Shown here piece by piece: positions 1 to 18,535 of a stretch of 64,000 nt of DNA. The position numbers and the translations under genes were made by a program. Position 1 is the stretch's first letter, and the number at the start of each line of letters is the position of its first letter. Source of the stretch: Lachnospiraceae bacterium GAM79 (GTDB lineage: Bacteria > Bacillota > Clostridia > Lachnospirales > Lachnospiraceae); the NCBI GenBank assembly GCA_003584705.1, contig AP018536.1, positions 3,348,001 through 3,412,000 of the forward strand, read 5' to 3'. Under the pieces are notes generated by a model. The model searched no databases. It was not told the origin of the DNA and saw nothing but the letters and a program-made list of their open reading frames with translations.

Positions 1-1230
1 GGAAAGGCATTTCTCCAGCCTCTCTACATTTGCCTGATGATCCTTCATCTCTTTCATTAATCCGGGAAAATGAATAAGATTTTTATTCACCTTAAACTTC
101 ACAGTCGGCAGGCACAGAAAACCATTGTCATCCAGACGGCAGTCATTGTCCACCAGCATACCGCCTTCTGCGAAGATCTCTGCTTTCTGTCTGCTTATAG
201 GCATACAGAAGTCATAATCCAGCGGGAGGTAAGGCACCGGCATCTTTTCCATGAGAAACATCAGGGTAGCCTTCATCTTCTGGTTGACCGGCTGAAGAGG
301 CGGCATTTTACTTTCATCCACTTCTTTTCTTTCTTCTGCTCCTGCCATAATGGCTCTTGCCTGCAAAATATATAATTTCTGATCCACAAACGCCCATTCA
401 ATATCCATGGGTTTGTGATAATGTCTTTCAATCTCTGCTGCAGTTTCTGTCAGCTTCCTGATCTGTTCATCAGAAAGAGAAAGTCTGCTTCTTTTTCCCT
501 CTGCAACAGGCACGGTAACCGTCTGTTTTTCTCCGTAAACAACCTGCGTTTCCTTGGCTCCGATCTGACACTTTATCACATTTCCCAGTCTGTCGCAGAC
601 CAGCTCATCCGGACTTACGACGCCAGATACCACCGATTCTCCAAGTCCGTAGGAAGCATTGATCAGCATTTCTTCTTTCTTTCCGCTGGCCGGATTTATG
701 GTAAATACTACACCTGCAGTCTCACTTTCCACCATTTTCTGGATAACGACAGCCAGTGCGACGTTCTCATCCTCATATCCTTTTTCTCTCCGGTAGCTGA
801 CAGCCCTGTCCCCCCATAGAGAAGCATAACAGCGTTTTACAGCCTCTGTCAGTTCCTCTTCTCCTCTGACATTCAGATACGTTTCCTGCTGTCCTGCAAA
901 GCTGGCATCCTCTAGGTCTTCTGCTGTGGCAGAGGATCTGACGGCAATCCGTTCTCCCTCTCCGATCCCGATATAATATTCCAGAAGTGTCACATGAAGC
1001 TCTTTCGGCATGCTGCCTGTCAGAAATGCTTTCCGGATTTCCTCTGCCGGTGCCTTCAGATCAATTTTATTTTCCTTCACATACAGCCTGTAGGCCTCTG
1101 TGGTAAGCACTGCTCCCTCCGGTACCGGTATCCCTGCGTGTACCATTTCTCCGAGGTTGGCTCCTTTGCCTCCTGCTGTCAGAATATCCTTTTTCGTAAT
1201 ATCTTCAAACCGCTGCAACAATGCTGTCAT
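1..1230 (-). CDS. PEP synthase / pyruvate phosphate dikinase-like enzyme, N-terminal part (runs off left edge)
   Basis: The 410 residues visible form the ATP-grasp (PPDK N-terminal) half of a phosphoenolpyruvate synthase, PPDK or rifampicin-phosphotransferase-like protein. The gene starts at the ATG at 1230 behind a good site (GGGAAGGAG) and stays open to base 1. Recognisable motifs are GGKGANLGEM near residue 20, the ATP-binding IAVRSSATAEDLEDASFAGQ around residues 95-115, and the PMDIEWAF..LYILQAR end of the ATP-grasp fold around residue 290. Family members usually have 780-870 residues and carry a phosphohistidine domain and sometimes a PEP-binding TIM barrel; those parts lie outside the window, so PEP synthase and a Rph-like phosphotransferase cannot be told apart. 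It is transcribed in the same direction as the sugar operon to its right, about 100 bases from the response regulator. Confidence 0.85.
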   Translation of the reverse strand, partial: MTALLQRFEDITKKDILTAGGKGANLGEMVHAGIPVPEGAVLTTEAYRLYVKENKIDLKAPAEEIRKAFLTGSMPKELHVTLLEYYIGIGEGERIAVRSSATAEDLEDASFAGQQETYLNVRGEEELTEAVKRCYASLWGDRAVSYRREKGYEDENVALAVVIQKMVESETAGVVFTINPASGKKEEMLINASYGLGESVVSGVVSPDELVCDRLGNVIKCQIGAKETQVVYGEKQTVTVPVAEGKRSRLSLSDEQIRKLTETAAEIERHYHKPMDIEWAFVDQKLYILQARAIMAGAEERKEVDESKMPPLQPVNQKMKATLMFLMEKMPVPYLPLDYDFCMPISRQKAEIFAEGGMLVDNDCRLDDNGFLCLPTVKFKVNKNLIHFPGLMKEMKDHQANVERLEKCLS

Positions 1231-7469: not shown

Positions 7470-8828
7470 CTATATTGTTGAAATATGAATATATCTGGGT
7501 TCCGGCTTCTCCGGTTCCTGATCCCCAAGATATACGCCCTGCTTCTTCAGCTGATCCTGCAGCTTTTTCACAGAAAGCTTTCTGAAAGGAACGTCCTCTT
7601 TGATGCTCAGTGCCGCCGCTGCTCCTGCAGCTTCCCCAGTTCCATAGCAGGTGGCCATAACAGCAATTCCATCATGGGCAATGCAGCGTCCCGCTGCAAT
7701 AATATTTTCTACTTCCAGTGGAAGTAATGCCCTGTAAGGAATGCTGTAAGCGTGTCCGGGAATCAGCCAGTACAATTCACAGCCTCCTCCATTCGGATTA
7801 TGGATATCCACACCATAGGCATTCATGGAAATCGCATCATCAAATATAGTATAATTCAGGATATCATCTCTGGTCACTTTATACTCTGCCACGATTCTTC
7901 TGGATACCATCATACCCATCATATTGGCAACCTTGGTCAGTCTTGCATGCTCTGTTCCTTTATAATTATGATGAAGCCAGTCAAGAACCTCCAGTATCTG
8001 CTTTCTGCATGCAATTTCACCCTTTGTGATATCCTCTGCAGAGCAGGGATTGATACCTGTCACTCTGGTCATTTCTGCCCGGAATTCATCTTCCTTCATC
8101 AGCGGGAACAGATTGACTGCTCCATAGGCAAGGGACTTATCTACCTTCCAGGTTACTGTATCCGGCGCAAGACCATCCATACAGAACATGGTAGATACCG
8201 GACTCTTTACTTCTTCTCCATCCTTTTCTCCTACGCCTGTTTCAAATGGCGCTCCTGTGTAGGCAATGACATCTCCATCTCCGGTACAGTCGATCACACG
8301 TTTTGCATATACTGCCTGTCTGCCGGATTTGTTTTCAATGATGACACCTCGGATCGTCTTTCCTTCCATGATAGCTGCCGTGATGTAGGTATGGAATAAT
8401 ACCTTTATGCCATATTTTTCTACCAGTCTGTCAGCTGCGATCTTATACATTTCCGGATCAAACGGGCAGATCGCCGTATCCGGCTCATGGCGGTTGACCG
8501 AAAAGTATGGTCTTTCTTCTGCCAGGTGTGGTGGCTTGATACAGCCTCCCATCTCCTCCAGAAGATTTGTAAATTCCTCAAACACTCCCTTGATCACCTG
8601 TCTGCCTCCGGTATAGGCTGACATGGACATAAAGGATGTGACAAGTCCTACGGTTCCCTGTCCGCCAAGGCAGTTAAACCTTTCGATCAACAGAACCTCT
8701 GCGCCATTTTTGGCAGCGCTGACTGCCGCTGCGATCCCTGAAGGTCCACCGCCACATACCAGCACATCCACATCATAGCTGACAGGCAGTTTTTTTTCAG
8801 GTTCCACATAAATTTTCTGACTCTGCAT
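7470..8828 (-). CDS. FAD-dependent oxidoreductase (FAD_oxidored family)
   Basis: This 452-residue flavoprotein has a Rossmann FAD-binding site near the N-terminus (VLVCGGGPSGIAAAVSAAK, Gly-rich loop at 26-31, then the acidic LLIERFNCLGGQGT), and a second dinucleotide-fold element VIDCTGDGDVIAYTGAPFE. The C-terminal NIIAAGRCIAHDGIAV block is characteristic of PF12831. Members are found with carbohydrate or organic-acid catabolism genes and oxidise or reduce small substrates; the reaction here is unknown. It is the first gene of the ABC/two-component operon, with GGGAGG before its ATG, which suggests it acts on the imported compound. No other catabolic enzyme is in the operon. Confidence 0.85.
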   Translation of the reverse strand: MQSQKIYVEPEKKLPVSYDVDVLVCGGGPSGIAAAVSAAKNGAEVLLIERFNCLGGQGTVGLVTSFMSMSAYTGGRQVIKGVFEEFTNLLEEMGGCIKPPHLAEERPYFSVNRHEPDTAICPFDPEMYKIAADRLVEKYGIKVLFHTYITAAIMEGKTIRGVIIENKSGRQAVYAKRVIDCTGDGDVIAYTGAPFETGVGEKDGEEVKSPVSTMFCMDGLAPDTVTWKVDKSLAYGAVNLFPLMKEDEFRAEMTRVTGINPCSAEDITKGEIACRKQILEVLDWLHHNYKGTEHARLTKVANMMGMMVSRRIVAEYKVTRDDILNYTIFDDAISMNAYGVDIHNPNGGGCELYWLIPGHAYSIPYRALLPLEVENIIAAGRCIAHDGIAVMATCYGTGEAAGAAAALSIKEDVPFRKLSVKKLQDQLKKQGVYLGDQEPEKPEPRYIHISTI

Positions 8829-9229
8829 GAATAATCCTCCCTTATCGTTTTGAACTGTTTCTTTGTAAGATAATTGTAGGATTTTATCCGTTTCACAGAT
8901 ATAAGAGGATTTTTTGTTCCTTATAGTTTTTTTCTTTTTCGCATTATACTTTTTTGTGATTGTTATACTCTTTTGCCCTTATCCCTGGAAACAGTATCTG
9001 CTGTATCTTTATTTTGTGGTTGCATAATAAATGTATTTATGATACACTCACTTCATTCCCACCCGTTTCCGGGATTCCGGGAAGATCATGTTGATTCTTT
9101 TATTTTTATCTTTTGGCATTTCGCCGGATGTTTTCTAAACTGGTCTGCATGATGTAACTATTCACTTTTGTTTTTTGATGTTGTCCTGACATCCGGAAAC
9201 TCACATCTTTATTCAAAGGAGGTCTATCT
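8829..9229. other. Intergenic region between divergent genes
   Basis: This is 400 bases of AT-rich non-coding DNA between the oxidoreductase (minus) and the broken Rpn gene (plus). On the minus strand a TATAAT lies at 8943-8948, a possible -10 for the transport operon, but no good -35 stands 16-18 bases upstream. On the plus strand TTGCAT and TACACT are spaced by 17 bases around 9019-9047, a weak promoter candidate. No gene or clear repeat was found. Confidence 0.4.
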
Positions 9230-9383
9230 ATGACCACAAATCTACTGAAGTCTTATTTTCCTATGATCCAAAGCCGGGAGGAAATCCTTGCCAGGATCTA
9301 TTCTAACCCAAAGCTACAGCAGCTTTTTGAAAGCTGGACTGTCCTGCAGCAGAAAGAATTCCTCGATTTTTGCTCCGGTGCCG
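9230..9383 (+). pseudogene. Rpn-family recombination-promoting nuclease/transposase, 5' remnant
   Basis: It has an excellent start (AAAGGAGG then ATG at 9230). The first ~51 residues read like the N-terminus of PD-(D/E)XK nuclease-family (Rpn/PDDEXK_2) proteins of Lachnospiraceae: LKSYFPMIQSREEI followed by SWTVLQQKEFLDFCSGA. In intact members this continues into RGVK..LYDSFFKEIMNPE and about 200 further residues. Here the similarity stops right after SGA (about 9383) and the sequence continues into the antisense of a minus-strand gene. This marks a recombination junction and the left edge of the island. The family comparison is from memory of the family. Confidence 0.7.
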
Positions 9384-9690
9384 CAAGAGATGTAGAATCA
9401 CTCAAAGGATCAACATCATGCTCTGCCCCCAGTGCAATTCCAAGATAGCGTTCGCCTTTTTCTATCAGCTGCGCACTTTCAAGACTATATGTTACTGCTA
9501 CTTCATTGGAATCATTTTCGTCTTTAGAAATTTGTAGAACTTGTCTTGCCAGTTCACGAAGATTATCATATTCTGTTTCTGGTATCTCTTTATACTGAAC
9601 ACGTGGCACTTTGTTAATTGCCGCGTCTGTGATCATAATCTTATAGTCACGCTTTTTTGCCATTTCAAGATCATTTAAATTCTCACTCAT
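9384..9690 (-). pseudogene. Unrecognised protein, 3' end lost at the island junction
   Basis: About 102 residues are native, starting with the ATG at 9690 (MSENLNDLEMAKKRDYKIMI). The frame stays open beyond the junction near 9383, but from there it is only the antisense of the Rpn remnant, so the natural C-terminus is missing. The visible part is charged and soluble with a conserved-looking IPETEYDNLRELARQVLQ helix and a LIEKGERYLGIALG segment. I do not recognise the family with certainty. It lies 18 bases downstream of the HEPN gene and may have been its operon partner. The same break truncates two genes that now meet tail to tail. Confidence 0.55.
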
Positions 9691-9708
9691 ATTTACTCAC
9701 TTTCTCTA

Positions 9709-10518
9709 TCACATGTATTTTTTAACAACAATACATTGATCTAAATATTTATGAAGAAATGATATTTGCTGCAATATTTCCACTGCAGCAGCTTCATCAA
9801 TGTCCCAACGTATTCTCAATTCATGCGCTGTGACATTACGAACCATATGTATTATACCAAGTATCATCTCTTTAAGACCATTTTGTTGATTCTGTTCTGA
9901 TGATGTTCTTAGCGAATTAAAGGCAATATATGGATTTTTATTTGAAAACGCTGTCTGAATCAATTCATTTCCATCTTCAGGTAATCCTGTCATCTCACGT
10001 ACTCTGTCACACAAACTCTTGGCAGCCTCTTGTACTGCATGAAAATAATCCTCTGCCAATAATTCCTCTTTACAACATTGAAGAACATATTGATGTGCTC
10101 CATATCCATATAACTTCTGCCTAAGTTCTCTTGTTCTTCTTGTAACTTCTGATACCCCTTGTGCTTTTTGTACAGTTCTAAAGTTTCCTCCATCATCAAT
10201 TTCTATGCCTTTCAGCATCAGAATTTTATTTGTTTCCATTCTTCTTTTAGCATACTTTTCCTCATCTACAAGCCCCCTTGCTGGATCCATACACTTTTGA
10301 ATAAACATATATATTGAGTTACATGACTTTTCTCTATTATATCTTTCCACAAAGGAATTATATAATCTCTTATATTTTGTCATAGTCGGATTTTCATCAG
10401 CAAAATAATATTGTTTGAGCAACACCTCTAATTCTGAACCAGTAAAACCATACTCTGTATCTGCTAACGCTTTACTTATTGCTAAAATCTCTGCTTGCGA
10501 TAAATTTGGAAACTTCAA
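9709..10518 (-). CDS. TIGR02391 (Hypoth_Ymh) family protein with HEPN-type RNase motif
   Basis: The protein has 269 residues when started from a TTG at 10518, which has GGGGAGG seven bases upstream; the longer GTG start at 10542 would lie ahead of that site. The C-terminal ~120 residues match the Ymh/TIGR02391 family: FHAVQEAAKSLCDRVREMTG, then GLKEMILGIIHMVRNVTAHE. RNVTAH fits the R-N-x-x-x-H motif of HEPN ribonucleases, so an RNA-cleaving defensive function is plausible. TIGR02391 proteins are often found next to restriction-modification genes and within defence islands. The N-terminal half is helical with no recognised domain. It is followed closely by the truncated gene at 9384-9690. Confidence 0.75.
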   Translation of the reverse strand: MKFPNLSQAEILAISKALADTEYGFTGSELEVLLKQYYFADENPTMTKYKRLYNSFVERYNREKSCNSIYMFIQKCMDPARGLVDEEKYAKRRMETNKILMLKGIEIDDGGNFRTVQKAQGVSEVTRRTRELRQKLYGYGAHQYVLQCCKEELLAEDYFHAVQEAAKSLCDRVREMTGLPEDGNELIQTAFSNKNPYIAFNSLRTSSEQNQQNGLKEMILGIIHMVRNVTAHELRIRWDIDEAAAVEILQQISFLHKYLDQCIVVKKYM

Positions 10519-10614
10519 TACTATTCCTCCCCTTGTGTTCACAATATTTCTTCAAACTATACTTCAAAATCAAATATATCGTTTTCACATATGTAATACC
10601 TTTTTGTGGTCCTA

Positions 10615-11460
10615 TCACCTCAACGGACACTCTGACATAGTTATCCTATCTGCTAAATCATATAATCCATTTGAATATATATATTGTCGTAAAATATTTA
10701 TATTCTGCTGTGACCTCGGTCCAACTATTACTTCATCTATTATTTTTTCTAAACTGGTTCCCTTTGAATTTCCCATAATATCTGGTTTAAGTATATATAC
10801 TTTCTTTACAACATTACCAATTTCTTTTAGTGCGTATTCTGTACCATACGGAGATTTATTATCCATTGTTGTAATTCTTATTTCATGCTCATTTTTAAAT
10901 GATTTGTGTTTATGTAAATTACCTGCATAAATCAACTGCCTTATCAATTCTTCTTCAGACGAATATATATCTATATTGCCTTTATCAAAATATTTTTTGA
11001 CTATTTCAAAGTAAGCGTCATTTGTTATTGAATCATTATAAAAAACTTCATTGAACATTATATCATTATATCCATATAGGCATTTATATAATTCTCCAAC
11101 ATTAAAAGACAAACAAACACCCATAGCGGAATCCCCATATCTTTCCCATTGAGCCGCATCGTCTTTTTCCGTTGATAAACAAAATGCATATTTATAGCTA
11201 AACGGAATTTGATTATATACCTTTTCAAAAAAATCCTGTCTGCAATACGATTTTAATTCCTTTTCCAATAATTCAATAAAATATGTAATTTCTTTTCTGT
11301 CATTCATTGAACCAGTACTACTCATCCATATTTCCCGCGTTCTCATCATGCATAGAAATGCATTAAGTGAAGTATAGTGATACAATCTATTCCCAAATTT
11401 TTCTTCATACTTTTTTATTCCATTGTCCATTTGAATAAAATCAGCACTATTTAATTCCAT
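10615..11460 (-). CDS. DUF2971 family protein
   Basis: This 281-residue protein matches the DUF2971 family in layout: an N-terminal LYHYTSLNAFLCMMRTREIWMS (read in parts), SMNDRKEI, then CLSTEKDDAAQWERYGDSAMGVCL and a C-terminal HEIRI motif. Conserved His, Arg, Glu and Trp residues in DUF2971 recall ADP-ribosyl/NAD-handling folds, but the activity is not established. DUF2971 genes are common cargo of phage-defence islands. The ATG at 11460 has AAGGTGATG upstream. It is separated by about 95 bases from the HEPN gene and by 408 bases from the helicase gene. Confidence 0.8.
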   Translation of the reverse strand: MELNSADFIQMDNGIKKYEEKFGNRLYHYTSLNAFLCMMRTREIWMSSTGSMNDRKEITYFIELLEKELKSYCRQDFFEKVYNQIPFSYKYAFCLSTEKDDAAQWERYGDSAMGVCLSFNVGELYKCLYGYNDIMFNEVFYNDSITNDAYFEIVKKYFDKGNIDIYSSEEELIRQLIYAGNLHKHKSFKNEHEIRITTMDNKSPYGTEYALKEIGNVVKKVYILKPDIMGNSKGTSLEKIIDEVIVGPRSQQNINILRQYIYSNGLYDLADRITMSECPLR

Positions 11461-11868
11461 TCTAACATCACCTTTCTATAACCCCATCCAAAACACCTAT
11501 ATTATCGCCTGTCGGGTTCATTTCTTAAATCTTTCCTTTGACATCTTAACTTCTTTTGTTAAAGAAAGACGGATGACCTAAGTCATCCGCCTTTTGATGT
11601 TTAGCAGTTTACTCTGTAATGGGAATGAGTTTTAGGTCTTCAGTCCGACCACCATAAATAAGTTTTAAGTTTTCATTCCGACTATAACATCTTCTTGTGA
11701 CCTAAATATACACTATCACATGCTAAAAGTCAATTGTAGCGCTACTTTATACGTTCTATCCATTCTACGGGTTTCAAAATGTTCTTATACCATAAGGCAA
11801 CGAATATGCATATAACATTTTTATTGTCCAACTTCAAAAATGTCCCGTTTCCGGGTGCATCCTCTTAT
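11461..11868. other. Intergenic region with a terminator and two similar 23-bp segments
   Basis: This non-coding stretch lies between the helicase operon end and DUF2971. Besides the hairpin at 11565-11595 it holds two related segments at about 11630-11652 and 11665-11687 (GAGTTTTAGGTCTTCAGTCC and AAGTTTTAAGTTTTCATTCC, each followed by GAC), 35 bases apart. They are too few and too divergent for a CRISPR. Nothing else was recognised. Confidence 0.4.
11565..11595. terminator. Stem-loop, probable bidirectional terminator
   Basis: CGGATGAC (570-577) pairs with GTCATCCG (582-589) across a 4-base loop, flanked by A-rich and T-rich runs (AAAGAAAG and CCTTTTG). It is placed after the helicase operon. 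Confidence 0.55.
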
Positions 11869-14800
11869 CTACTCCTCTTTAGAATACAATTCATCCAACA
11901 CTTGATCCAGCGTTCCTTCCTTTGCATAAGGCAAAGCATCTAACTGTCTGAAATTATGCTTGATATTCTTCGTATCCTCATCAAATCCCAATATGTAACT
12001 TGTTGCTATCTTATATATGATTTCCGTTGGAGCAAGTCCGTACACCTGCTTTTCAAAGATATGCTTCAAGCGTTCCTTATTGTCTGGGAATTGCTTTTTC
12101 ATCTCGTCACTCTGATACAGCCTTTTTACAATCTCTGTAATATACAGACCGGATTTCATATACAAATCAATAAAGGTCTTATCCGGCATATCAAAACAAC
12201 CAGGATTCTCCTGCTCTAGCATGTCCACCATTTTCTTAACCATTGTCTTTGGTGTGAATATCTGGTTGGTTTTCTGCGGTGGAATATAATCAAATATATC
12301 TTCCACACTCTTTTCATCAAAATAATCCGCCAGCTTTTTCTTTAAAGCAAGAAATTCTTTTACCGAATCATCAAATACCACCGAATCAAATAGCTGTCCA
12401 TCAAAGTGCTTGGTCTGTCCGGTTTCTTCCTCTACATAATCGCCACCATCACGCAGAAATTTGAACTGATCCAGTGTGATGCTTGTCACTTCAAGAAACA
12501 CTTTATCTGGAATAATCGTATCAAAAGTCGCAAGTGTTACCGTATTATCTCCGTATGCCATAAGGAATGACGGGATTGTCCTCGAAAAACCACGCAGATG
12601 ATCTCTGACACCATCCTCGATTGTTTCCTTTTCACGCTCCTTTTTCTTGGTTTCTATGGTCTTGACTGTCTCTTTTGTAGATTCTTTTGCAAAATCAGAA
12701 ATAGCAGTTGTCAGTTCCTCATTGAATTTCTCCATAGCCACTTTCTGCTTCTGCTCAAATTCTTTATCAATCTGCTCTGAGGTTTTACCGGTTTCATATC
12801 TTGCCTGCTGTTCAGCAACACGTTGATTTTCTATAACATTTCGCTCAATCTCATAATTGGTATGCAACTTATCAATCATCCGATCGGCTTCATGATTCAA
12901 TTTTGATTCAATCTGTCTTTTATCTGCTGCTTTCATATCAGAGCCATAGGTAGACTGCGCAGTATCCACAACAGCCTTGACTGCACTCTGTTTTACTGCT
13001 TCTTTCAGTTTGTCGATGGCTTTCTGCGCCTTGTCCGGTGCCTGCTTCATCTGCGTCATTGTTTCCTGTACCTGAGATGTCACATCATAAATTTTATCGC
13101 CAAAAACATCCTGTGTTCTTCCAATCACAAATTCATCACTAAGAGCCACTTCCCCATTTTCATCCAGCGATAGATCTTTCTGCACTTCCTCCGTCAGATT
13201 TACCTTGCTCTTTGGTTCTTCTATTGGTTCAAACTTTGTGATAATATCAATGACTTCCTTCGGCGCCCCAAAGATGTTACTGATATTCTGAAACAGGAAA
13301 TTGCTCATAAACCCACGCTTTACAACCTCAATAGAACGAATTTTTCTCGGAATTGTCAGTACCTTTTCCGCATCCAGTTCTACTAATTCTCCCTGTTCAT
13401 CTTCACCAATTACAGGGAAGAAATTAAGCAATTCCTTTACATTTTCCTTCCGCTCCTCTGCAGTACCGCCGCCCTTCGCTGTATTAGGATTCAGATTGTT
13501 GGCAAACTGCTCAAAAATAGTAAGGGTTCTTGCCGGATCAAAGTCAAATACATAAGCATTTTCTTTTCTCTTGAAAGATGTCCCAACTTTAAACAGACAA
13601 GGATTCTGTGCCCGGAATGCCGCCTGCATATAAAGTGCCGGGGATCGCATATTACTAAGCATCAGCACTGCTGTCCATTCTGGAATTGTAATTCCTGTCG
13701 TAAGCTGTCCTACCGACAAAGTAATGGTCTTTTCATGCTGTGCAATAGCCGCAACCACTTTATCATAAGATTTCATTGTTTCCTCATCATCGTCCAGTTT
13801 GCCGTCGCCAGCAGCAAGAACAACTTCATATTCCTGGAATATTGGATGTTCCCTTAATTTTTTTGCCAGCACCTTTGCACTGTCTACCCTATCGAGCAGC
13901 CAGAAGGTGTGCTTTAATTCATCTCGCAATTTTTCCGTAGAAAATGGAAATTTTGTCTGTCTTGTCAGGGCATCGAGAAATTTATCAACGGAAGATTCAT
14001 GGTTAAACTTACCATTGGTAACCGCAAAAAACTCATTCAGATCAAATGCATATTCTTCTGTCTCCCCGTCAATTTCTATGCCCTGCTGAAGCTCATCCTT
14101 GATAATTTCTGACATCTGATAAGTATAGAGATTAAGCTGTGGCAATGTTGAATACGGATTTTCTTCCTCTGCTGAAACATCCCAGTCACGTTTTTTCTTC
14201 TGTTCATCTGCATAAGTCCAGTTATAGATAGCATCATCAGCAAATTTATTATTGGCAAGTGCTTTAAACGGTGTTCCTGACAAATGCAACGTAAATTTAC
14301 GCTTAATACGATCAAATGCAACATCTGTTTTGTAGGTATCCACACCCTCATGTGCTTCGTCGATGACAAGGATATCCCACTCCATATTTGCGACCTCACC
14401 TAATTTATCATACTGACCTCCAAAATAAATGGAACCTTTCATATCCTGCAAGGATACAAATTCAATACATTTTACATTTTCACTGTCTTTTCCTAAAAGA
14501 AAATGTGTATATTCTTCTCTTGTCAACACACCTCTTTTCCCTTTTAGTGCATCAACTTCACTCACAAAAAGATACCCTGATTCACTACCCAGAAATTTGG
14601 CATAATCTGAAAACCACGAATTTGCAATTGCTGGTCGGTTTGTCACAATCAGTACTTTTTCTGCACCGGTTTTCTGCACAAAATCATAGACCGATAATGT
14701 CTTTCCAAATCTCGGCTTGGCATTCCAAAGGAACTCGCCATCTTTATGCGCTGCCTGATAATCAACCGTCATTGTAACCGCACGCTGCTGTTCCTCACGC

Positions 14801-15189
14801 AATTTGTACGGAATCACTGCATCTGTGGTTTTTAGGATACCATGATCTTCCCTGAAATCACGAAACATCTGCTTTGATGTAGCACCATCCACATGAAACC
14901 ACTCATTATTCTTGCCTTTTTCCTGCTCTATACCGGATTTCCGCAAATAAGCATGAAAGTCCTTATCTATGAATGTCTCCCCTGAACCATCATCAAAAGT
15001 GGCATTTCCTTTCCATTCAAGATGCCACTTAACATCAGCAGTATGTGTCTGTTGATTGATACGAGTTTCTACATCCTGCTCTGTATATCCTATCTTCGTC
15101 CAGCCATTATGTCGAACTACTTCCGGAGTGGAATAGCCATAAAGCATCGGAACTACCTGTTTGGTTGTTTGAATGTTAGGTTTATTCAT
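11869..15189 (-). CDS. GIY-YIG nuclease / SF2 helicase / N6-methyltransferase front half, restriction-like fusion
   Basis: The protein has 1106 residues in four parts. (1) Residues 15-85 resemble a GIY-YIG/T5orf172 nuclease: LYGYS, WTKIGYT, Arg43, Glu71, and His79 in FHAYL. (2) Residues 130-600 are a superfamily-2 helicase: Walker-type AKPRFGKT at 157-164, DEAH at 277-280, SGTPFK at 304-309, and a motif V/VI-like TTGITIPEW and MQAAFRAQ. (3) Residues about 690-860 are Lys/Glu-rich coiled coil. (4) From 969 to the end is the start of an Eco57I-like adenine methyltransferase: motif X FTPK at 978, a diverged motif I FIDLYMKSGLY at 1006-1016, then VYGLAPTEI as motif II. There is no catalytic NPPY; that is the first thing in the neighbouring gene, which lies upstream, so the methylase is split and permuted. 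The start ATG is 1 base after the preceding stop, implying coupling. Confidence 0.85.
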   Translation of the reverse strand: MNKPNIQTTKQVVPMLYGYSTPEVVRHNGWTKIGYTEQDVETRINQQTHTADVKWHLEWKGNATFDDGSGETFIDKDFHAYLRKSGIEQEKGKNNEWFHVDGATSKQMFRDFREDHGILKTTDAVIPYKLREEQQRAVTMTVDYQAAHKDGEFLWNAKPRFGKTLSVYDFVQKTGAEKVLIVTNRPAIANSWFSDYAKFLGSESGYLFVSEVDALKGKRGVLTREEYTHFLLGKDSENVKCIEFVSLQDMKGSIYFGGQYDKLGEVANMEWDILVIDEAHEGVDTYKTDVAFDRIKRKFTLHLSGTPFKALANNKFADDAIYNWTYADEQKKKRDWDVSAEEENPYSTLPQLNLYTYQMSEIIKDELQQGIEIDGETEEYAFDLNEFFAVTNGKFNHESSVDKFLDALTRQTKFPFSTEKLRDELKHTFWLLDRVDSAKVLAKKLREHPIFQEYEVVLAAGDGKLDDDEETMKSYDKVVAAIAQHEKTITLSVGQLTTGITIPEWTAVLMLSNMRSPALYMQAAFRAQNPCLFKVGTSFKRKENAYVFDFDPARTLTIFEQFANNLNPNTAKGGGTAEERKENVKELLNFFPVIGEDEQGELVELDAEKVLTIPRKIRSIEVVKRGFMSNFLFQNISNIFGAPKEVIDIITKFEPIEEPKSKVNLTEEVQKDLSLDENGEVALSDEFVIGRTQDVFGDKIYDVTSQVQETMTQMKQAPDKAQKAIDKLKEAVKQSAVKAVVDTAQSTYGSDMKAADKRQIESKLNHEADRMIDKLHTNYEIERNVIENQRVAEQQARYETGKTSEQIDKEFEQKQKVAMEKFNEELTTAISDFAKESTKETVKTIETKKKEREKETIEDGVRDHLRGFSRTIPSFLMAYGDNTVTLATFDTIIPDKVFLEVTSITLDQFKFLRDGGDYVEEETGQTKHFDGQLFDSVVFDDSVKEFLALKKKLADYFDEKSVEDIFDYIPPQKTNQIFTPKTMVKKMVDMLEQENPGCFDMPDKTFIDLYMKSGLYITEIVKRLYQSDEMKKQFPDNKERLKHIFEKQVYGLAPTEIIYKIATSYILGFDEDTKNIKHNFRQLDALPYAKEGTLDQVLDELYSKEE

Positions 15190-15190
15190 G

Positions 15191-16225
15191 CTATTCCATC
15201 TCCTTTACATTAGTTTCGATAAATGCGATTTCCTCTTCGGAAAGCCCATATTTTTTATAGAGTTGCTTGTCAATGTTTGCTATGGATACAGACCAGTCGA
15301 TATCGGATTTATCAGTGAAATCTTGACGAGGGACATATTTCCATACATCAGGCGTTAAATGCTGCGTAATTTTCAATACATTTAACATAGCTCTGGCAAA
15401 CTTACTTTTTATATATTTCAACAGATTTGTTGCTTCAGCCTTGCTATCAAAGCATCCCACACTGATAAATGTTTCCGTAGATCCTATTCCCGGAATACCC
15501 AATACAGGTGCAGTAAGCGTTTCTCCAAAAACACCATTTCCATTTGCGCTTGGTAAAAAAATCTTATACTGAAACAAATTTTTAGGCTGATTAACATAAT
15601 CGGAACGAATATACTTATATACTCTTTGAGAATTTTCTCTTCCCAAAATTCGAATATATTTATTACCGTCATTAGGTGCTTCATTAAAAAAGAACTGAGG
15701 AAGCCGATTAAATATATTCGTTGACATGTCGTATGGATGTCCTTTGCTTAACTGATCCATCGCTTCCGTATGTTCTTGATGTAACTTTTCAGTTAAACGA
15801 TAAGCGGTACGTGTAACTACAAGAGTATCCATCGGAACAAAATCAATCGTATTGTTTACTTTATGAAGAATATGATTGAGTGCTGGATATTTAGTAAATA
15901 CAACAATGGGTTCATACTTAGCATCAGAAGTTCGATAAGTAATAGCTACTCCACCTTTAATATCCGTATTGGCAAATACCTTAGAAGCATCCTCCTCATA
16001 ATGCATTACTTTAAAATGTGGATCATTTAGCATTTTTTCATTCCATGCCTTCGGAGTAGATCCAGCATTAAATAGAAATCTTGCCGGATGTATCATTTCC
16101 ACAGAATCTGCTACCGCATAAGCCGCATCTAAAAATTTGTTATATACCGGTGGTGCATATGTATCATTTTCTCCTATGGCATTATCTTGATACGGCGGAT
16201 TTCCAATCGCAAAATCAAACTTCAT
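15191..16225 (-). CDS. Eco57I-like DNA adenine methylase, catalytic NPPY half
   Basis: This 344-residue protein opens with FAIGNPPYQDN: the methyltransferase catalytic motif IV is at residues 8-11, and no S-adenosylmethionine-binding motif I precedes it. The rest (MIHPARFLF, IKGGVAITYR, then a target-recognition-like region with KIFLPSANGNG and a C-terminal DIDWSVSIANIDKQLYKKYG) matches the second half of Eco57I-family methylases. It must therefore be completed in trans, either by the C-terminus of the helicase protein (motifs X-I-II) or by the 314-residue protein encoded just upstream. Stop and start codons of the three genes are 1 base apart, so all three are co-translated. A role in self-protection of a restriction-like system is inferred. 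Confidence 0.82.
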   Translation of the reverse strand: MKFDFAIGNPPYQDNAIGENDTYAPPVYNKFLDAAYAVADSVEMIHPARFLFNAGSTPKAWNEKMLNDPHFKVMHYEEDASKVFANTDIKGGVAITYRTSDAKYEPIVVFTKYPALNHILHKVNNTIDFVPMDTLVVTRTAYRLTEKLHQEHTEAMDQLSKGHPYDMSTNIFNRLPQFFFNEAPNDGNKYIRILGRENSQRVYKYIRSDYVNQPKNLFQYKIFLPSANGNGVFGETLTAPVLGIPGIGSTETFISVGCFDSKAEATNLLKYIKSKFARAMLNVLKITQHLTPDVWKYVPRQDFTDKSDIDWSVSIANIDKQLYKKYGLSEEEIAFIETNVKEME

Positions 16226-16226
16226 A

Positions 16227-17171
16227 TCATCTACCTTCCTTCATGCTTTTGTATGTCAGTGACTTATCGCTACGCCAGTCATAGATCCGGCAGTACACTT
16301 CTTCCGGTTCTTCTGTATCCTGCTTTTCCGGCTCATCTGCTACCACAAAGTCAAATAGACTAAATTGATGGTATTCCTCTTTGGGCTTTCCAAAAGGGAT
16401 TGTCCCGGATATTCCATCCATCTGCCACAGGTTCCAGACAATGACATTCACAATCTTTCGCAGTTCTGCATCTGTTGGAACTCTACCCCACCTGTCCTGC
16501 ATATAGTCCACAAAAGTTATTAGCAGATTGATTCTTGCAATCAGAAGGCTGTCTCCCTGAAATTCATAACCATACACACTCTGATATGCCCGAAGCACCC
16601 ATTTGAACCATTCTGTTTCATTGACTGTATTTTCATTTACCACACGTAGTTTTCTGTCTAAAATTCCTATCCGCTGCCTAATCTCAAGCAGTTCTCCGGT
16701 AGCTGCATCATAACGCGACACGATGTAGGGAGCTTCGCCACAGGTAATCTCAAGCCTTTTGGAATCGACATATTTTTTCCATCCATCCTCTGTGTCAAAC
16801 CCCACTTTTTCTGTGTTTACCAGCCAACCCTGTTCCTGTTCAGTATTAAAAACATTCTTTCTTCCAAACCACTCCTCATCACAGTGGTTATTCATTTTGT
16901 TGCAAATCCATGAAGGCGTAAACACCTCTGCTTTGGCTTTGGTACGCTCCTGCTGTTGTTCCTTATTCTTTAGCACCCTCGGTTGTATCTCATACTGCGT
17001 AAATCCTTTTAAGATTTCCTCCGTCATTTGTTCCGTTTCCTTGATTGGAGTACCTTTAGAACTATATACCGAAGTTGCAAATATAATATTTTTCTTTGTT
17101 GTCTTATCCTTCAGCAATGCTTTAAGATTTTCACTGACCGGATAAGTATTCAGATTAATTAACTTATCCAT
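16227..17171 (-). CDS. Methylase-like subunit (restriction endonuclease subunit M family)
   Basis: The protein has 314 residues from the ATG at 17171, chosen because GAGG stands six bases before it; an in-frame ATG at 17183 overlaps that site. It contains a motif X-like EVFTPSWICNKM, a characteristic DEEWFGRKNVFNTE, then YVDSKRLEITCGEAPYIVSR, where the E-x-x-C-G-x-x-P-Y run resembles a methylase motif I, and RIGILDRKLRVVNENT. Databases commonly call relatives restriction endonuclease subunit M. It lacks an NPPY motif, so alone it cannot be a complete methylase. It is the first gene of the three-gene operon. A GCTATC/GATAGC hairpin lies just before its ribosome-binding site (about 17190-17215) and may modulate expression. 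Confidence 0.75.
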   Translation of the reverse strand: MDKLINLNTYPVSENLKALLKDKTTKKNIIFATSVYSSKGTPIKETEQMTEEILKGFTQYEIQPRVLKNKEQQQERTKAKAEVFTPSWICNKMNNHCDEEWFGRKNVFNTEQEQGWLVNTEKVGFDTEDGWKKYVDSKRLEITCGEAPYIVSRYDAATGELLEIRQRIGILDRKLRVVNENTVNETEWFKWVLRAYQSVYGYEFQGDSLLIARINLLITFVDYMQDRWGRVPTDAELRKIVNVIVWNLWQMDGISGTIPFGKPKEEYHQFSLFDFVVADEPEKQDTEEPEEVYCRIYDWRSDKSLTYKSMKEGR

Positions 17172-17393
17172 TTTTATCCTCATTTCTAAAGCCAGCTATC
17201 CTTGATAGCCAGCTTGGAAAAAATGTATACATTTCCAGTAATCGTATACATAAAACCATTCTTACATATTGTATCACGAAATCAGTCGAAATTCAGTAAT
17301 TTTCTGTCAAAACTTCGTGAAATTTCACAGTTACAAATCCAAATTTTTCTCATGAAAAAAAGTATACCATTTCAGTTAGAACACATGAACTAT

Positions 17394-18002
17394 TTAACTG
17401 GATTTTTCATATTTTACTGCCTTGCTGTAAAACGTCTTAGGGCACATATTACAAGCCTTTGCTGCTTCTTCTATTGTGATTTTCCCTGCCCGCCAGTCTT
17501 TGTGCATCTGATAAAAGTTTTCTGGAATTGGTAATGGTGGTCTGCCGAACTTTACGCCCCTTGCTTTTGCCGCTGCAATTCCCTCCGCCTGTCTTTGCTT
17601 GATATTGGTACGTTCGTTTTCTGCGACATAGCTGAGCAATGCCAGAACAACATCGCTGATAAATGTTCCGAGCAGATTCTTTTCTCTGCGGGTATCTAGC
17701 AGTGGCATATCTATAACAACAATATCTGCTTTCTTCTCTTTCGTGATAATGCGCCATTGTTCATTCAATTCCCCGTAATTCCTGCCTAAGCGGTCAATCG
17801 ACTTGATATACAGCACACTGTTTTCATTTAATTTTCGCAATAACCGCTTATATTGTGTTCTCTCAAAATCCTTACCCGACTGCTTATCCATATAAATGTT
17901 ATTCTCAGGTACTCCCATCTCCGTTAATGCGATTTTCTGTCTATCCTCATTTTGCTCCTTGGATGACACTCGCATATATCCATAAATGTTTATTTCTTCC
18001 AT
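17394..18002 (-). CDS. Small serine recombinase (resolvase/invertase family)
   Basis: This is a 202-residue site-specific recombinase. The N-terminal catalytic domain starts YGYMRVSSKEQN with the nucleophile Ser in RVSS, followed by the active-site arginines (SIDRLGRN). The long E helix (VALLSYVAENERTNIKQRQAEG) leads to a short C-terminal helix-turn-helix (KITIEEAAKACNMCPKTFYSK). The size fits DNA resolvases and invertases, not the large transposon integrases. Start at the ATG 18002 (GGGAGG nine bases before); a TTG at 18026 is less likely. It lies 220 bases upstream of the methylase operon in the same orientation and next to the IS110 left end. It could be an island maintenance resolvase or an inversion switch; no inverted recombination sites were found by eye. 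Confidence 0.88.
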   Translation of the reverse strand: MEEINIYGYMRVSSKEQNEDRQKIALTEMGVPENNIYMDKQSGKDFERTQYKRLLRKLNENSVLYIKSIDRLGRNYGELNEQWRIITKEKKADIVVIDMPLLDTRREKNLLGTFISDVVLALLSYVAENERTNIKQRQAEGIAAAKARGVKFGRPPLPIPENFYQMHKDWRAGKITIEEAAKACNMCPKTFYSKAVKYEKSS

Positions 18003-18072
18003 GTATTTTTGCCTCCCATCTGCCAATTTTTCCTACTTAGGTCTAGTATTTGCATGCATATTGGTATATAAC

Positions 18073-18535
18073 CAACAGAAAGCTGATTCGATAAAATCAA
18101 CCTTCTGTTGTAGTGTGTAATCATCATTGTATTATTCTTGATAACCGCCATCTATCCCACCTCCTGGTATGATGTAGTCATAGACCAATAGCAGTCTTCT
18201 ACATCATTATTTAATCTATATCAAGGTTGGTAGGAGGATTCTCCTCTGATTTCATTCCAACCAAAGATACGTGTATAAGTTACATGTTTTTAGTATAATT
18301 ATTCACTCCTAGACTTCGTCTGTTACATAAGGTATTATATTCCATTGAATAGGGAAAAGGACGTTCGCCTCCTAGGGAGCTGGCTTATGTCCAGCAATAC
18401 CCGTAACTTTAGACAGTCATTCCATCAATGAAAATTTATGTTTTAGGCTGGTTGGGAGCAATTAAGCTATACCCGTATCACGTGCCAGGTAGTGTATTCA
18501 TTGTTTTTATGGAACCCTATCGGAAGGAGCTTACA
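18073..18535 (+). ncRNA. IS110 left end, candidate bridge RNA region
   Basis: This non-coding sequence between the recombinase and the transposase holds at least three strong hairpins. CAACAGAA (18073-18080) pairs with TTCTGTTG (18103-18110), with an inner TGATT/AATCA. GGTTGG (18225-18230) pairs with CCAACC (18257-18262), with an inner AGGAG/CTCCT. GCTGG (18379-18383) pairs with CCAGC (18391-18395). IS110 elements of this layout transcribe a structured RNA with two internal loops that pair with target and donor DNA. The RNA borders and the guide loops cannot be fixed without homologues, so the call is a region, not a defined RNA. Confidence 0.45.

What the first reader, a model, noticed from the sequence alone, without database searches (positions are those of the whole stretch)
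11869..17171. Three-gene restriction-like system with a split, permuted adenine methyltransferase fused to a GIY-YIG helicase
Seen directly: the helicase protein ends with methylase motifs X (FTPK), I-like (FIDLYMKSGLY) and II, but has no NPPY; the adjacent 344-residue protein starts with NPPY and has no motif I; a third protein carries another FTP..EITCGEAPY front end. The three genes are separated by 1 base each. Known families: Eco57I-like methylases, SF2 helicases, GIY-YIG nucleases. Inference: nuclease, motor and a methylase assembled in trans form one defence system with an unusual order (NPPY gene first, front half at the C-terminus of the motor). Two competing front halves raise the question of which one pairs with the NPPY subunit.
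Basis: partly seen in the sequence, partly recalled or inferred. Interest (0 to 1): 0.75.

Follow-up and report, generated by a model that had tools for sequence, protein, structure and literature searches.

The report
Restriction system sharing one methylase half
Three adjacent bacterial genes look like a DNA-cutting defence system in which one target-reading, catalytic half of a DNA-marking enzyme can pair with two different partner halves, one that still looks able to bind the methyl donor and one on the cutting motor that does not, so marking and cutting may share one sequence reader.

Summary
In detail: on the minus strand, 318-aa S (FTP, EITCGEAPY, no NPPY), 344-aa B (starts MKFDFAIGNPPYQ) and 1106-aa H-F (GIY-YIG, SF2 helicase, then FTPK/FIDLYMKSGLY) lie 1 base apart. 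S and B are collinear halves of a gamma-class adenine methyltransferase: of the 80 closest genome loci, 32 have an S-B fusion beside H-F and 14 the window's split, and a natural S-B fusion folds confidently as one methyltransferase with recognition domain. The helicase's F is a homologous but altered second front half: the motif II acid is kept in 129 of 129 S and 0 of 113 F; the first motif I glycine is Lys in 107 of 112 F. Yet F is under strong purifying selection, and in other lineages B is fused to F, with S separate: two front halves, one back half. Best reading: an ATP-dependent restriction-modification system; S with B writes methyl marks, and H-F docks on the same B to read and restrict. 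The writer is well supported (activity untested); F docking on B is inference. PADLOC files the parts as Type II/IIG; ten literature searches showed no description of the shared half.

The parts
16227..17171 (-). S: 314-aa front half of the methyltransferase (motifs X, I, II, III); the ORF reaches 17183 (318 aa) if the first ATG is used
   Evidence: PDLC03390 6.9e-108; the S-B fusion stands beside H-F in 32 of 80 genome loci
16725..16754 (-). S motif I, LEITCGEAPY
   Evidence: Glu and first Gly kept in 127 of 127 aligned S rows; the second Gly is Ala in the window and in 70 of 71 S rows of its kind, but Gly in 56 of 56 rows of the other kind
16563..16574 (-). S motif II, YGYE (ribose-binding acid in known MTases; that role is recalled)
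   Evidence: acid in 129 of 129 S rows
15191..16225 (-). B: 344-aa back half, NPPY plus target recognition domain
   Evidence: Eco57I Pfam back half only; PDLC03375 and C-terminus of PDLC03626
16190..16201 (-). B motif IV, NPPY
   Evidence: N-P-P in 137 of 137 rows with letters there (8 more rows have gaps), Y in 136
15401..16000 (-). Variable target-recognition region of B
   Evidence: 46-62% DNA identity to L009 in 150-base blocks here; 73-75% in the two blocks beside it; 83-99% in the other operon blocks except 13001-13300, where L009 lacks a stretch
11869..15189 (-). H-F: GIY-YIG nuclease, SF2 helicase, connecting region and C-terminal altered front half
   Evidence: conserved Y17, G34, R43, E96 and helicase motifs in 114 aligned H proteins
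14866..15189 (-). GIY-YIG (MUG113) nuclease domain
   Evidence: Pfam MUG113 residues 32-108; Y17, R43 and E96 each in 113 of 114; the second motif reads KIG or K-V/L-G
13510..14808 (-). SF2 helicase core (GKT, DEAH, SGTPF, QAAFRAQ)
   Evidence: ResIII residues 128-308; conservation
11869..12354 (-). F: altered second front half (FTPK, FIDLYMKSGLY, QVYGLAPTEI)
   Evidence: homologous to S: hhalign probability 94.7%, E 6.4e-8; motif II acid absent in 113 of 113, first motif I Gly to Lys in 107 of 112; dN/dS 0.033 against L009

Best explanation
An ATP-dependent restriction-modification system built from half-domains. S (SAM-binding front half) and B (NPPY catalytic and target-recognition half) assemble into a complete gamma-class N6-adenine methyltransferase that marks host DNA (well supported by sequence and fold; activity untested). 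H-F is the restriction arm: a GIY-YIG nuclease on an SF2 motor ending in F, a front half that has lost SAM-site residues. F most likely docks on the same B, in place of S or beside it, so that the restriction complex reads the same site through B without methylating it; an unmodified site would start ATP-driven movement and cutting (inferred, by analogy with Type ISP enzymes). Because both arms use one B, a single exchange of the recognition region would change the specificity of marking and cutting together (the exchange is seen; its effect is inferred).
For: Collinear natural S-B fusions are common and join just in front of KFDxxIGNPPY. AF2 of such a fusion (L054, 652 aa): mean pLDDT 89.6, pTM 0.82; it aligns over residues 63..636 to CamA, Z 19.6 (rmsd 8.4, 413 aligned), and to the LlaGI and LlaBIII Type ISP chains, Z 16.9 each. 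Motif II acid and first motif I Gly kept in S and lost in F; NPPY kept in B. S scored in 116 of 121 loci with H and B; of the 5 misses, L006 has S across the record's start, L106 has a weak S (66 bits) and L017, L098 and L114 stop at contig ends. Retrieval by H instead of B: of 8 fetched loci, the 6 with room all have S, F and B. S+B with no H or F in view: phages FNU4 and PTm1, and viral loci L128 and L207. F is not a relic: dN/dS 0.028-0.102 in 9 of 10 pairs (the tenth saturated), the same range as the helicase's 0.058-0.108. B's middle is exchanged while S and H-F stay alike: window vs L009; in L077-L091, L061-L078 and L094-L101 B alone is strongly diverged. LlaGI flips its target adenine in the absence of AdoMet (PMC4872093, passages), so reading without SAM is known.
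Against: No complex could be predicted. S of the window's kind is itself not canonical: its second motif I Gly is Ala in 70 of 71 rows, while F keeps that Gly in 112 of 112 and a motif I Asp or Glu in 109 of 111; the case that S and not F binds SAM rests mainly on the motif II acid and the first Gly. The FNU4 S-B fusion lacks motif X, which was not seen in the short ORFs upstream either. The single-chain F-B model is weak (pLDDT 76.4, pTM 0.62) and leaves the stretch 184-194 around NPPY below 50, though its F rows are more divergent; it aligns to CamA over 91..511 at Z 11.8. In distant jumbo-phage relatives (L143, L153, L284) F has intact motifs I and II and S is still there, so S is not merely a substitute for a broken SAM site. 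In H-F-B and F-B lineages (57 of 135 rows in the H tree) B is covalently tied to F, so S would have to displace F. No activity, recognition site or phage phenotype is known.
Confidence: 0.55

Rival explanations
1. One reading: F on the motor and B form the working methyltransferase in trans, and S is an alternative or accessory front half.
For: F and B are fused in one chain in LAB plasmids and many viral loci; the F-B model aligns to CamA as a front plus back half at Z 11.8; distant phage F halves keep intact motifs; F keeps the second motif I Gly that the window's kind of S has lost.
Against: F lacks the motif II acid in 113 of 113 rows and has Lys for the first motif I Gly in 107 of 112; S has kept both and accompanies B nearly everywhere; FNU4, PTm1, L128 and L207 have S and B without F or motor, although distant L284 keeps F-B chains with intact motifs plus S and no motor in view; the S-B state changes 11 times on the H tree, at least 10 forced by starred branches.
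Confidence: 0.1
2. A ternary or pseudo-dimer arrangement: S completes the fold of B permanently, and F binds S or the outside of S-B as a docking domain without ever occupying the front-half seat on B.
For: S-B folds confidently as a complete enzyme, while F attaches to B only weakly in the model; S persists even where F is intact.
Against: F joins B at the same junction, just before KFDxxIGNPPY, in H-F-B and F-B chains, as S does, which points to the same seat.
Confidence: 0.25
3. S-B is a plain Type II-like methyltransferase; H-F acts independently of B (for instance on modified or damaged DNA) and F is a retained vestige of an ancestral H-F-B enzyme.
For: F-B fusion is found in several separate clades of the H tree, so F without B may be a left-over; S-B also occurs without H in two genome loci (L018, L062).
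Against: F is kept in 117 of 121 loci and its dN/dS (0.028-0.102) is in the helicase's range; the 6 H loci with room all have B and S.
Confidence: 0.08

Closest known systems
Type ISP enzymes LlaGI and LlaBIII
   Same: SF2 motor, gamma-class adenine methyltransferase and recognition domain serving restriction; the S-B model aligns to their MTase-TRD parts at Z 16.9; H-F-B relatives are one long chain in a similar order.
   Different: Those are single chains with an Mrr nuclease (PMC4666363 search listing; PMC3874165 passages); here the nuclease is GIY-YIG, the front half on the motor has lost SAM-site residues, and a second, separate front half accompanies it.
PADLOC models PDLC03390, PDLC03375 (Type II MTase) and PDLC03626 (Type IIG RE-MTase)
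   Same: PDLC03390 matches S (6.9e-108) and PDLC03375 matches B (6.4e-35); PDLC03626 matches H-F-B relatives (L036 1.1e-40; L010's separate chains), and the C-terminal part of its profile matches B (4.1e-26), so the parts are catalogued.
   Different: PDLC03626 did not match the window's H-F at E 0.1. The models file the pieces as separate methyltransferases and a Type IIG enzyme; they do not express one back half with two front halves.
Naturally split C5 methyltransferases M.AquI and M.EcoHK31I
   Same: Methyltransferase divided into two polypeptides (PMC3404938 passages).
   Different: Those are cytosine-5 enzymes split elsewhere (M.AquI: I-VIII versus IX-X; M.EcoHK31I: IX alone); the passages mention no rival front half and no motor.
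EcoP15I (Type III, Mod2Res1)
   Same: A dimeric methyltransferase said to methylate only one strand, with a helicase arm (PMC4490356, start of abstract in the search listing only; 'one strand' partly recalled).
   Different: The two Mod subunits are copies of one protein (recalled); here the inferred division uses an intact and an altered front half.

Membership tests
gamma-class N6-adenine DNA methyltransferase (S+B) | Motif order X-I-II-III-IV then recognition domain | tested here: met
   S then B in the window; same order within single chains of fusions
gamma-class N6-adenine DNA methyltransferase (S+B) | Class-I MTase fold with C-terminal TRD | tested here: met
   Model of relative L054, Z 19.6 to CamA over 413 residues; the window's own S and B were not folded together
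gamma-class N6-adenine DNA methyltransferase (S+B) | Canonical glycines of motif I | tested here: inconclusive
   first Gly kept; second is Ala in the window and in 70 of 71 S rows of its kind
gamma-class N6-adenine DNA methyltransferase (S+B) | m6A activity | not testable with these tools
   needs expression and m6A calling
beta-class (permuted) methyltransferase | NPPY block in front of the motif X-I block in one enzyme | tested here: not met
   B follows S; only the altered F lies after B, in another gene
Type ISP restriction-modification | Single polypeptide | tested here: not met
   three genes in the window; H-F-B relatives are one chain but come with S
Type ISP restriction-modification | N-terminal Mrr-family nuclease | tested here: not met
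   MUG113/GIY-YIG instead, with conserved Y17, R43 and E96
Type ISP restriction-modification | SF2 helicase-like motor | tested here: met
   ResIII 1.7e-10, motifs conserved
Type ISP restriction-modification | Helical coupler between motor and methyltransferase | not tested
Type ISP restriction-modification | Cleavage between head-to-head sites after ATP-driven translocation | not testable with these tools
   needs biochemistry
Type IIG | Nuclease and complete methyltransferase on one chain | tested here: not met
   nuclease on H-F, methyltransferase halves on S and B
Type I restriction-modification | Separate HsdS for recognition and an HsdM holding both motif I and NPP(F/Y) | tested here: not met
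   variable recognition region lies in B with NPPY, motif I in S

The most novel reading that the evidence does not exclude
The system works by exchange of front halves: one catalytic and recognition half (B) toggles between S, which makes it a methyltransferase, and the altered F on the motor, which makes it a methylation-incompetent reader that licenses cutting. The writer-to-reader switch would be a subunit swap, with the conserved Lys of F occupying or closing the SAM pocket.
Probability: 0.3. Interest if true: 0.85.

Novelty: new variant of a known kind. Interest (0 to 1): 0.62.

Why it matters
Restriction-modification systems must keep marking and cutting at exactly the same sequence. 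Here that would be solved by sharing one half-enzyme between an intact and an altered partner, in a family found in bacterial genomes, plasmids and phages whose parts are catalogued only as separate methyltransferases and a Type IIG enzyme. It offers natural variants in which the shared half is free, tied to the writer or tied to the motor, so the question of how one reader serves two opposite outcomes becomes directly testable, and it shows half-domain fission and fusion at a fixed point in front of NPPY.

Tried and rejected
Searches of PDB sequences with profiles of B, S-B and F-B (E 0.01) and with the 1106-aa protein (E 0.1) gave no match. NCBIfam gave only sub-cut-off matches for H-F and B and none for S. 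A chance or lone-fragment origin of the 344-aa protein was rejected by conservation. An invertible or duplicated B cassette in the window was looked for: the own genome has one B copy, and the repeats reported in 8800-18200 are short and imperfect. A natural single chain holding S, F and B side by side, to fold as a stand-in for the complex, was not seen among the loci classified. Ten paper searches listed no paper whose title or abstract start describes a shared NPPY half with two front halves; several searches list only the best 12-20 of many papers, and papers outside that open library were not seen. Papers read only as passages: PMC3874165, PMC6158711, PMC3404938, PMC1564403, PMC4872093; PMC4490356 and PMC4666363 seen only as search listings.

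The S and F rows passed score thresholds and still hold redundant copies (L001 is the window's own genome; in the H tree L131-L133 are identical, and so are L094, L095 and L105), and the F profile was first built from five rows with altered motifs, so intact distant F halves (L143, L153, L284) fell outside the 113. The tree is a quick one with long-branch warnings (L106, L242) and no inferred root, so the direction of fusion changes is open; its label F-B includes chains where B shares an ORF with H though F scored too low, and L011 and L135 are labelled free because a separate B piece scored best. dS near or above 1 in several pairs is near saturation, and the B values there are inflated by exchanged middles; in one pair, L050-L051, B is by far the most alike part (pN 0.001), the opposite of the other pairs. 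A4's rows for F are more divergent than A3's for S, so the weaker F-B model is not evidence that F cannot pair with B.
Full report
WHAT IS THERE. Pfam sees ResIII and MUG113 in H-F and the back half of Eco57I in B, and nothing convincing in S; PADLOC models file S and B as Type II methyltransferases. The own genome has one copy of B.

RELATIVES. B-like proteins were found in 84 plasmid and 6 phage records. From genome contigs 470 relatives were confirmed and the best 80 kept; from viral contigs 62 loci were kept. Profiles for S, B, H and F were used to read the gene layout of each locus. S comes in two kinds, A (the window's, about 310 aa) and B (about 205-250 aa). In the 80 genome loci: 32 S-B fusions beside H-F with kind A (34 with L060 and the kind-B L063); 14 in the window's split order with kind A (16 with two of kind B); 9 with S beside one H-F-B chain (5 and 3 with S first, 1 with S last); 4 with S | H-F | B; and smaller or truncated classes. 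In the 62 viral loci, 24 are S | F-B | H, some from near-identical contigs. The same B is thus tied to S in some lineages, to F in others, and free in others. In E. faecium and L. brevis plasmids and in Arthrobacter S is the small protein annotated 'N-6 DNA methylase' or hypothetical. Two phages carry S and B with no motor within the fetched flanks: Fusobacterium phage FNU4, as a fusion that lacks motif X, and Tenacibaculum phage PTm1, as two genes in the order B, S; L128 (fusion) and L207 (two genes) are similar.

TWO FRONT HALVES, ONE BACK HALF. S and F are homologous (hhalign 94.7%, E 6.4e-8 between window-type F and kind-B S; 71.9%, E 3.4e-5 against the S-B profile). Their SAM-site residues differ: motif II acid 129 of 129 in S, 0 of 113 in F; first motif I Gly 127 of 127 in S, replaced by Lys in 107 of 112 F and by Thr in 5; NPP 137 of 137 in B. 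The Thr rows (L005, L074, L086, L090, L097) have an acid two positions before the lost one. The contrast is not total: the second motif I Gly is Ala in 70 of 71 kind-A S rows, the window included, Gly in 56 of 56 kind-B rows, and Gly in 112 of 112 F rows. Of 121 loci with H and B, S scored in 116 and F in 117; L006's S was found across the record start, L106 has a weaker S, and L017, L098 and L114 are cut by contig ends. For F, L014, L040 and L076 are truncated contigs; in L032 the helicase ORF stops at 625 aa and no F was found after it. Retrieval by the helicase rather than B gave the same picture: 8 loci were fetched, the 6 with room have S, F and B, and two lie at contig ends. The system is patchy: 3 of 61 relatives including the own genome, one of them only a 95-residue remnant of F, and 8 of 398 genomes of the phylum, the own genome included.

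STRUCTURE. A natural S-B fusion (L054) gives a confident single model (mean pLDDT 89.6, pTM 0.82) with short beta strands at motifs I, II and III in S (139-142, 199-203, 248-250) and the strand leading into NPPY in B (313-318). It aligns with CamA (Z 19.6), BrxX (17.4), LlaGI and LlaBIII (16.9) along most of its length, mostly at rmsd near 8-9 A as several domains are superposed together, and with the PacII M subunit at 3.2 A over 223 residues spanning both halves (4..422, Z 15.4); Foldseek's best rows include the same enzymes. The F-B segment of L036 is weaker (76.4, 0.62): B is good, F poor, and the stretch 184-194 around NPPY is below 50; still, CamA aligns over 91..511 at Z 11.8, while M.BseCI rows begin at 192-193, i.e. 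B only. The comparison leans towards S as the natural partner, but the alignments differ in divergence.

EVOLUTION. On a helicase tree of 135 rows the state of B (fused to S, fused to F, free) needs at least 15 changes in all; the S-B label changes 11 times, at least 10 forced by starred branches, the F-B label 4 times. The window sits with L009; its smallest starred sets hold 2 and then 5 free rows, then 9 free and 1 S-B. The window's operon is 83-99% identical in DNA to L009 in most 150-base blocks, 46-62% in the middle of B (15401-16000), 73-75% in the blocks beside it, and low in 13001-13300 where L009 lacks a stretch and its helicase frame is broken: the recognition region has been exchanged while both front halves stayed. 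Other close pairs show a strongly diverged B beside little-changed S and H-F (L077-L091, L061-L078, L094-L101), and one pair the reverse, a nearly identical B between more diverged partners (L050-L051). F itself is under strong purifying selection (dN/dS 0.028-0.102 in 9 of 10 pairs; helicase 0.058-0.108; in 3 of the 9 pairs F is slightly above the helicase), also where B is fused to S (L077-L091, L029-L057), so it looks like a working part, not a vestige.

MECHANISM. Shown by sequence or model: the layout, homologies, motif retention and loss, the S-B fold of a relative, S+B without motor, selection on F, exchange of the B middle. Inferred: S+B methylate adenine; F binds B; the F-B complex reads without methylating; H moves and GIY-YIG cuts at unmodified sites. 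LlaGI flips its target adenine although AdoMet is absent, with the catalytic Asn contacting it (PMC4872093 passages), so a SAM-less reader is plausible. Against a simple story, distant jumbo-phage relatives have an F with intact motifs and still carry S (L143, L153, and L284 with five F-B paralogues and one S), so S is not just a substitute for a broken site and may have an additional role.

KNOWN OR NEW. The closest known architecture is Type ISP, but the nuclease, the number of chains and the extra front half differ (membership rows). PADLOC's PDLC03626 covers H-F-B relatives and PDLC03390/PDLC03375 cover S and B. Natural split methyltransferases are known for C5 enzymes (PMC3404938 passages). 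The ten literature searches named in Tried and rejected showed no description of a shared back half. I rate it a new variant of a known kind.

Noticed in passing
window 17394-18026 (-): A resolvase-type serine recombinase gene lies 210 bases upstream of the S ORF; homologues sit 139-304 bases upstream of the system, same strand, in L009, L024, L026, L027, L042, L077, L079 and L081, so it may be a regular part of, or vehicle for, the cassette.
   Followed up: partly
window 9709-11460 (-): Downstream lie a Hypoth_ymh protein matching PADLOC PD-Lambda-3_B (2.8e-60) and a DUF2971 protein matching PDC-S31 (1.9e-07): perhaps a second defence system, i.e. a defence island.
   Followed up: no
L284 3311-10349 (same contig as L149): A viral contig carries five tandem 378-396-aa methyltransferases with nearly identical front ~110 residues and different back/recognition parts, followed by one small S protein: several specificities perhaps sharing one S.
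   Followed up: partly
L135 7895-11159: An extra B on the opposite strand, with inverted repeats of 160 nt (76%) and 33 nt (97%, over an NPPY start) in that region: perhaps an invertible recognition cassette.
   Followed up: partly
L070, L034, L080, L049, L019 between S and B: Other genes are inserted between S and B: an NTase-like/HEPN-like pair (L070, L034), a DUF262-like protein (L080), a small GIY-YIG-like protein (L049), a DUF559-like protein (L019) (these names are recalled, not tested).
   Followed up: partly
L082 861-6082: Order B | H-F | S with an about 60-residue remnant of a second B after S: looks like an operon-level rearrangement by duplication and loss.
   Followed up: no
L289 (unnamed same-genus genome G002): Only a 95-residue remnant of F (residues 1011-1105, 87% identical, one TGA) matched the 1106-aa protein there: probably a deleted copy.
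   Followed up: no
L009 7028-10151 (MT835780.1, labelled phage): A near-identical operon in a faecal contig deposited as phage lacks a stretch of its helicase gene, whose reading frame is broken into two ORFs.
   Followed up: partly
L018 9047-10261: An S-B fusion without H-F is followed by a 404-aa protein with no Pfam match at E 0.1, possibly a different partner.
   Followed up: partly
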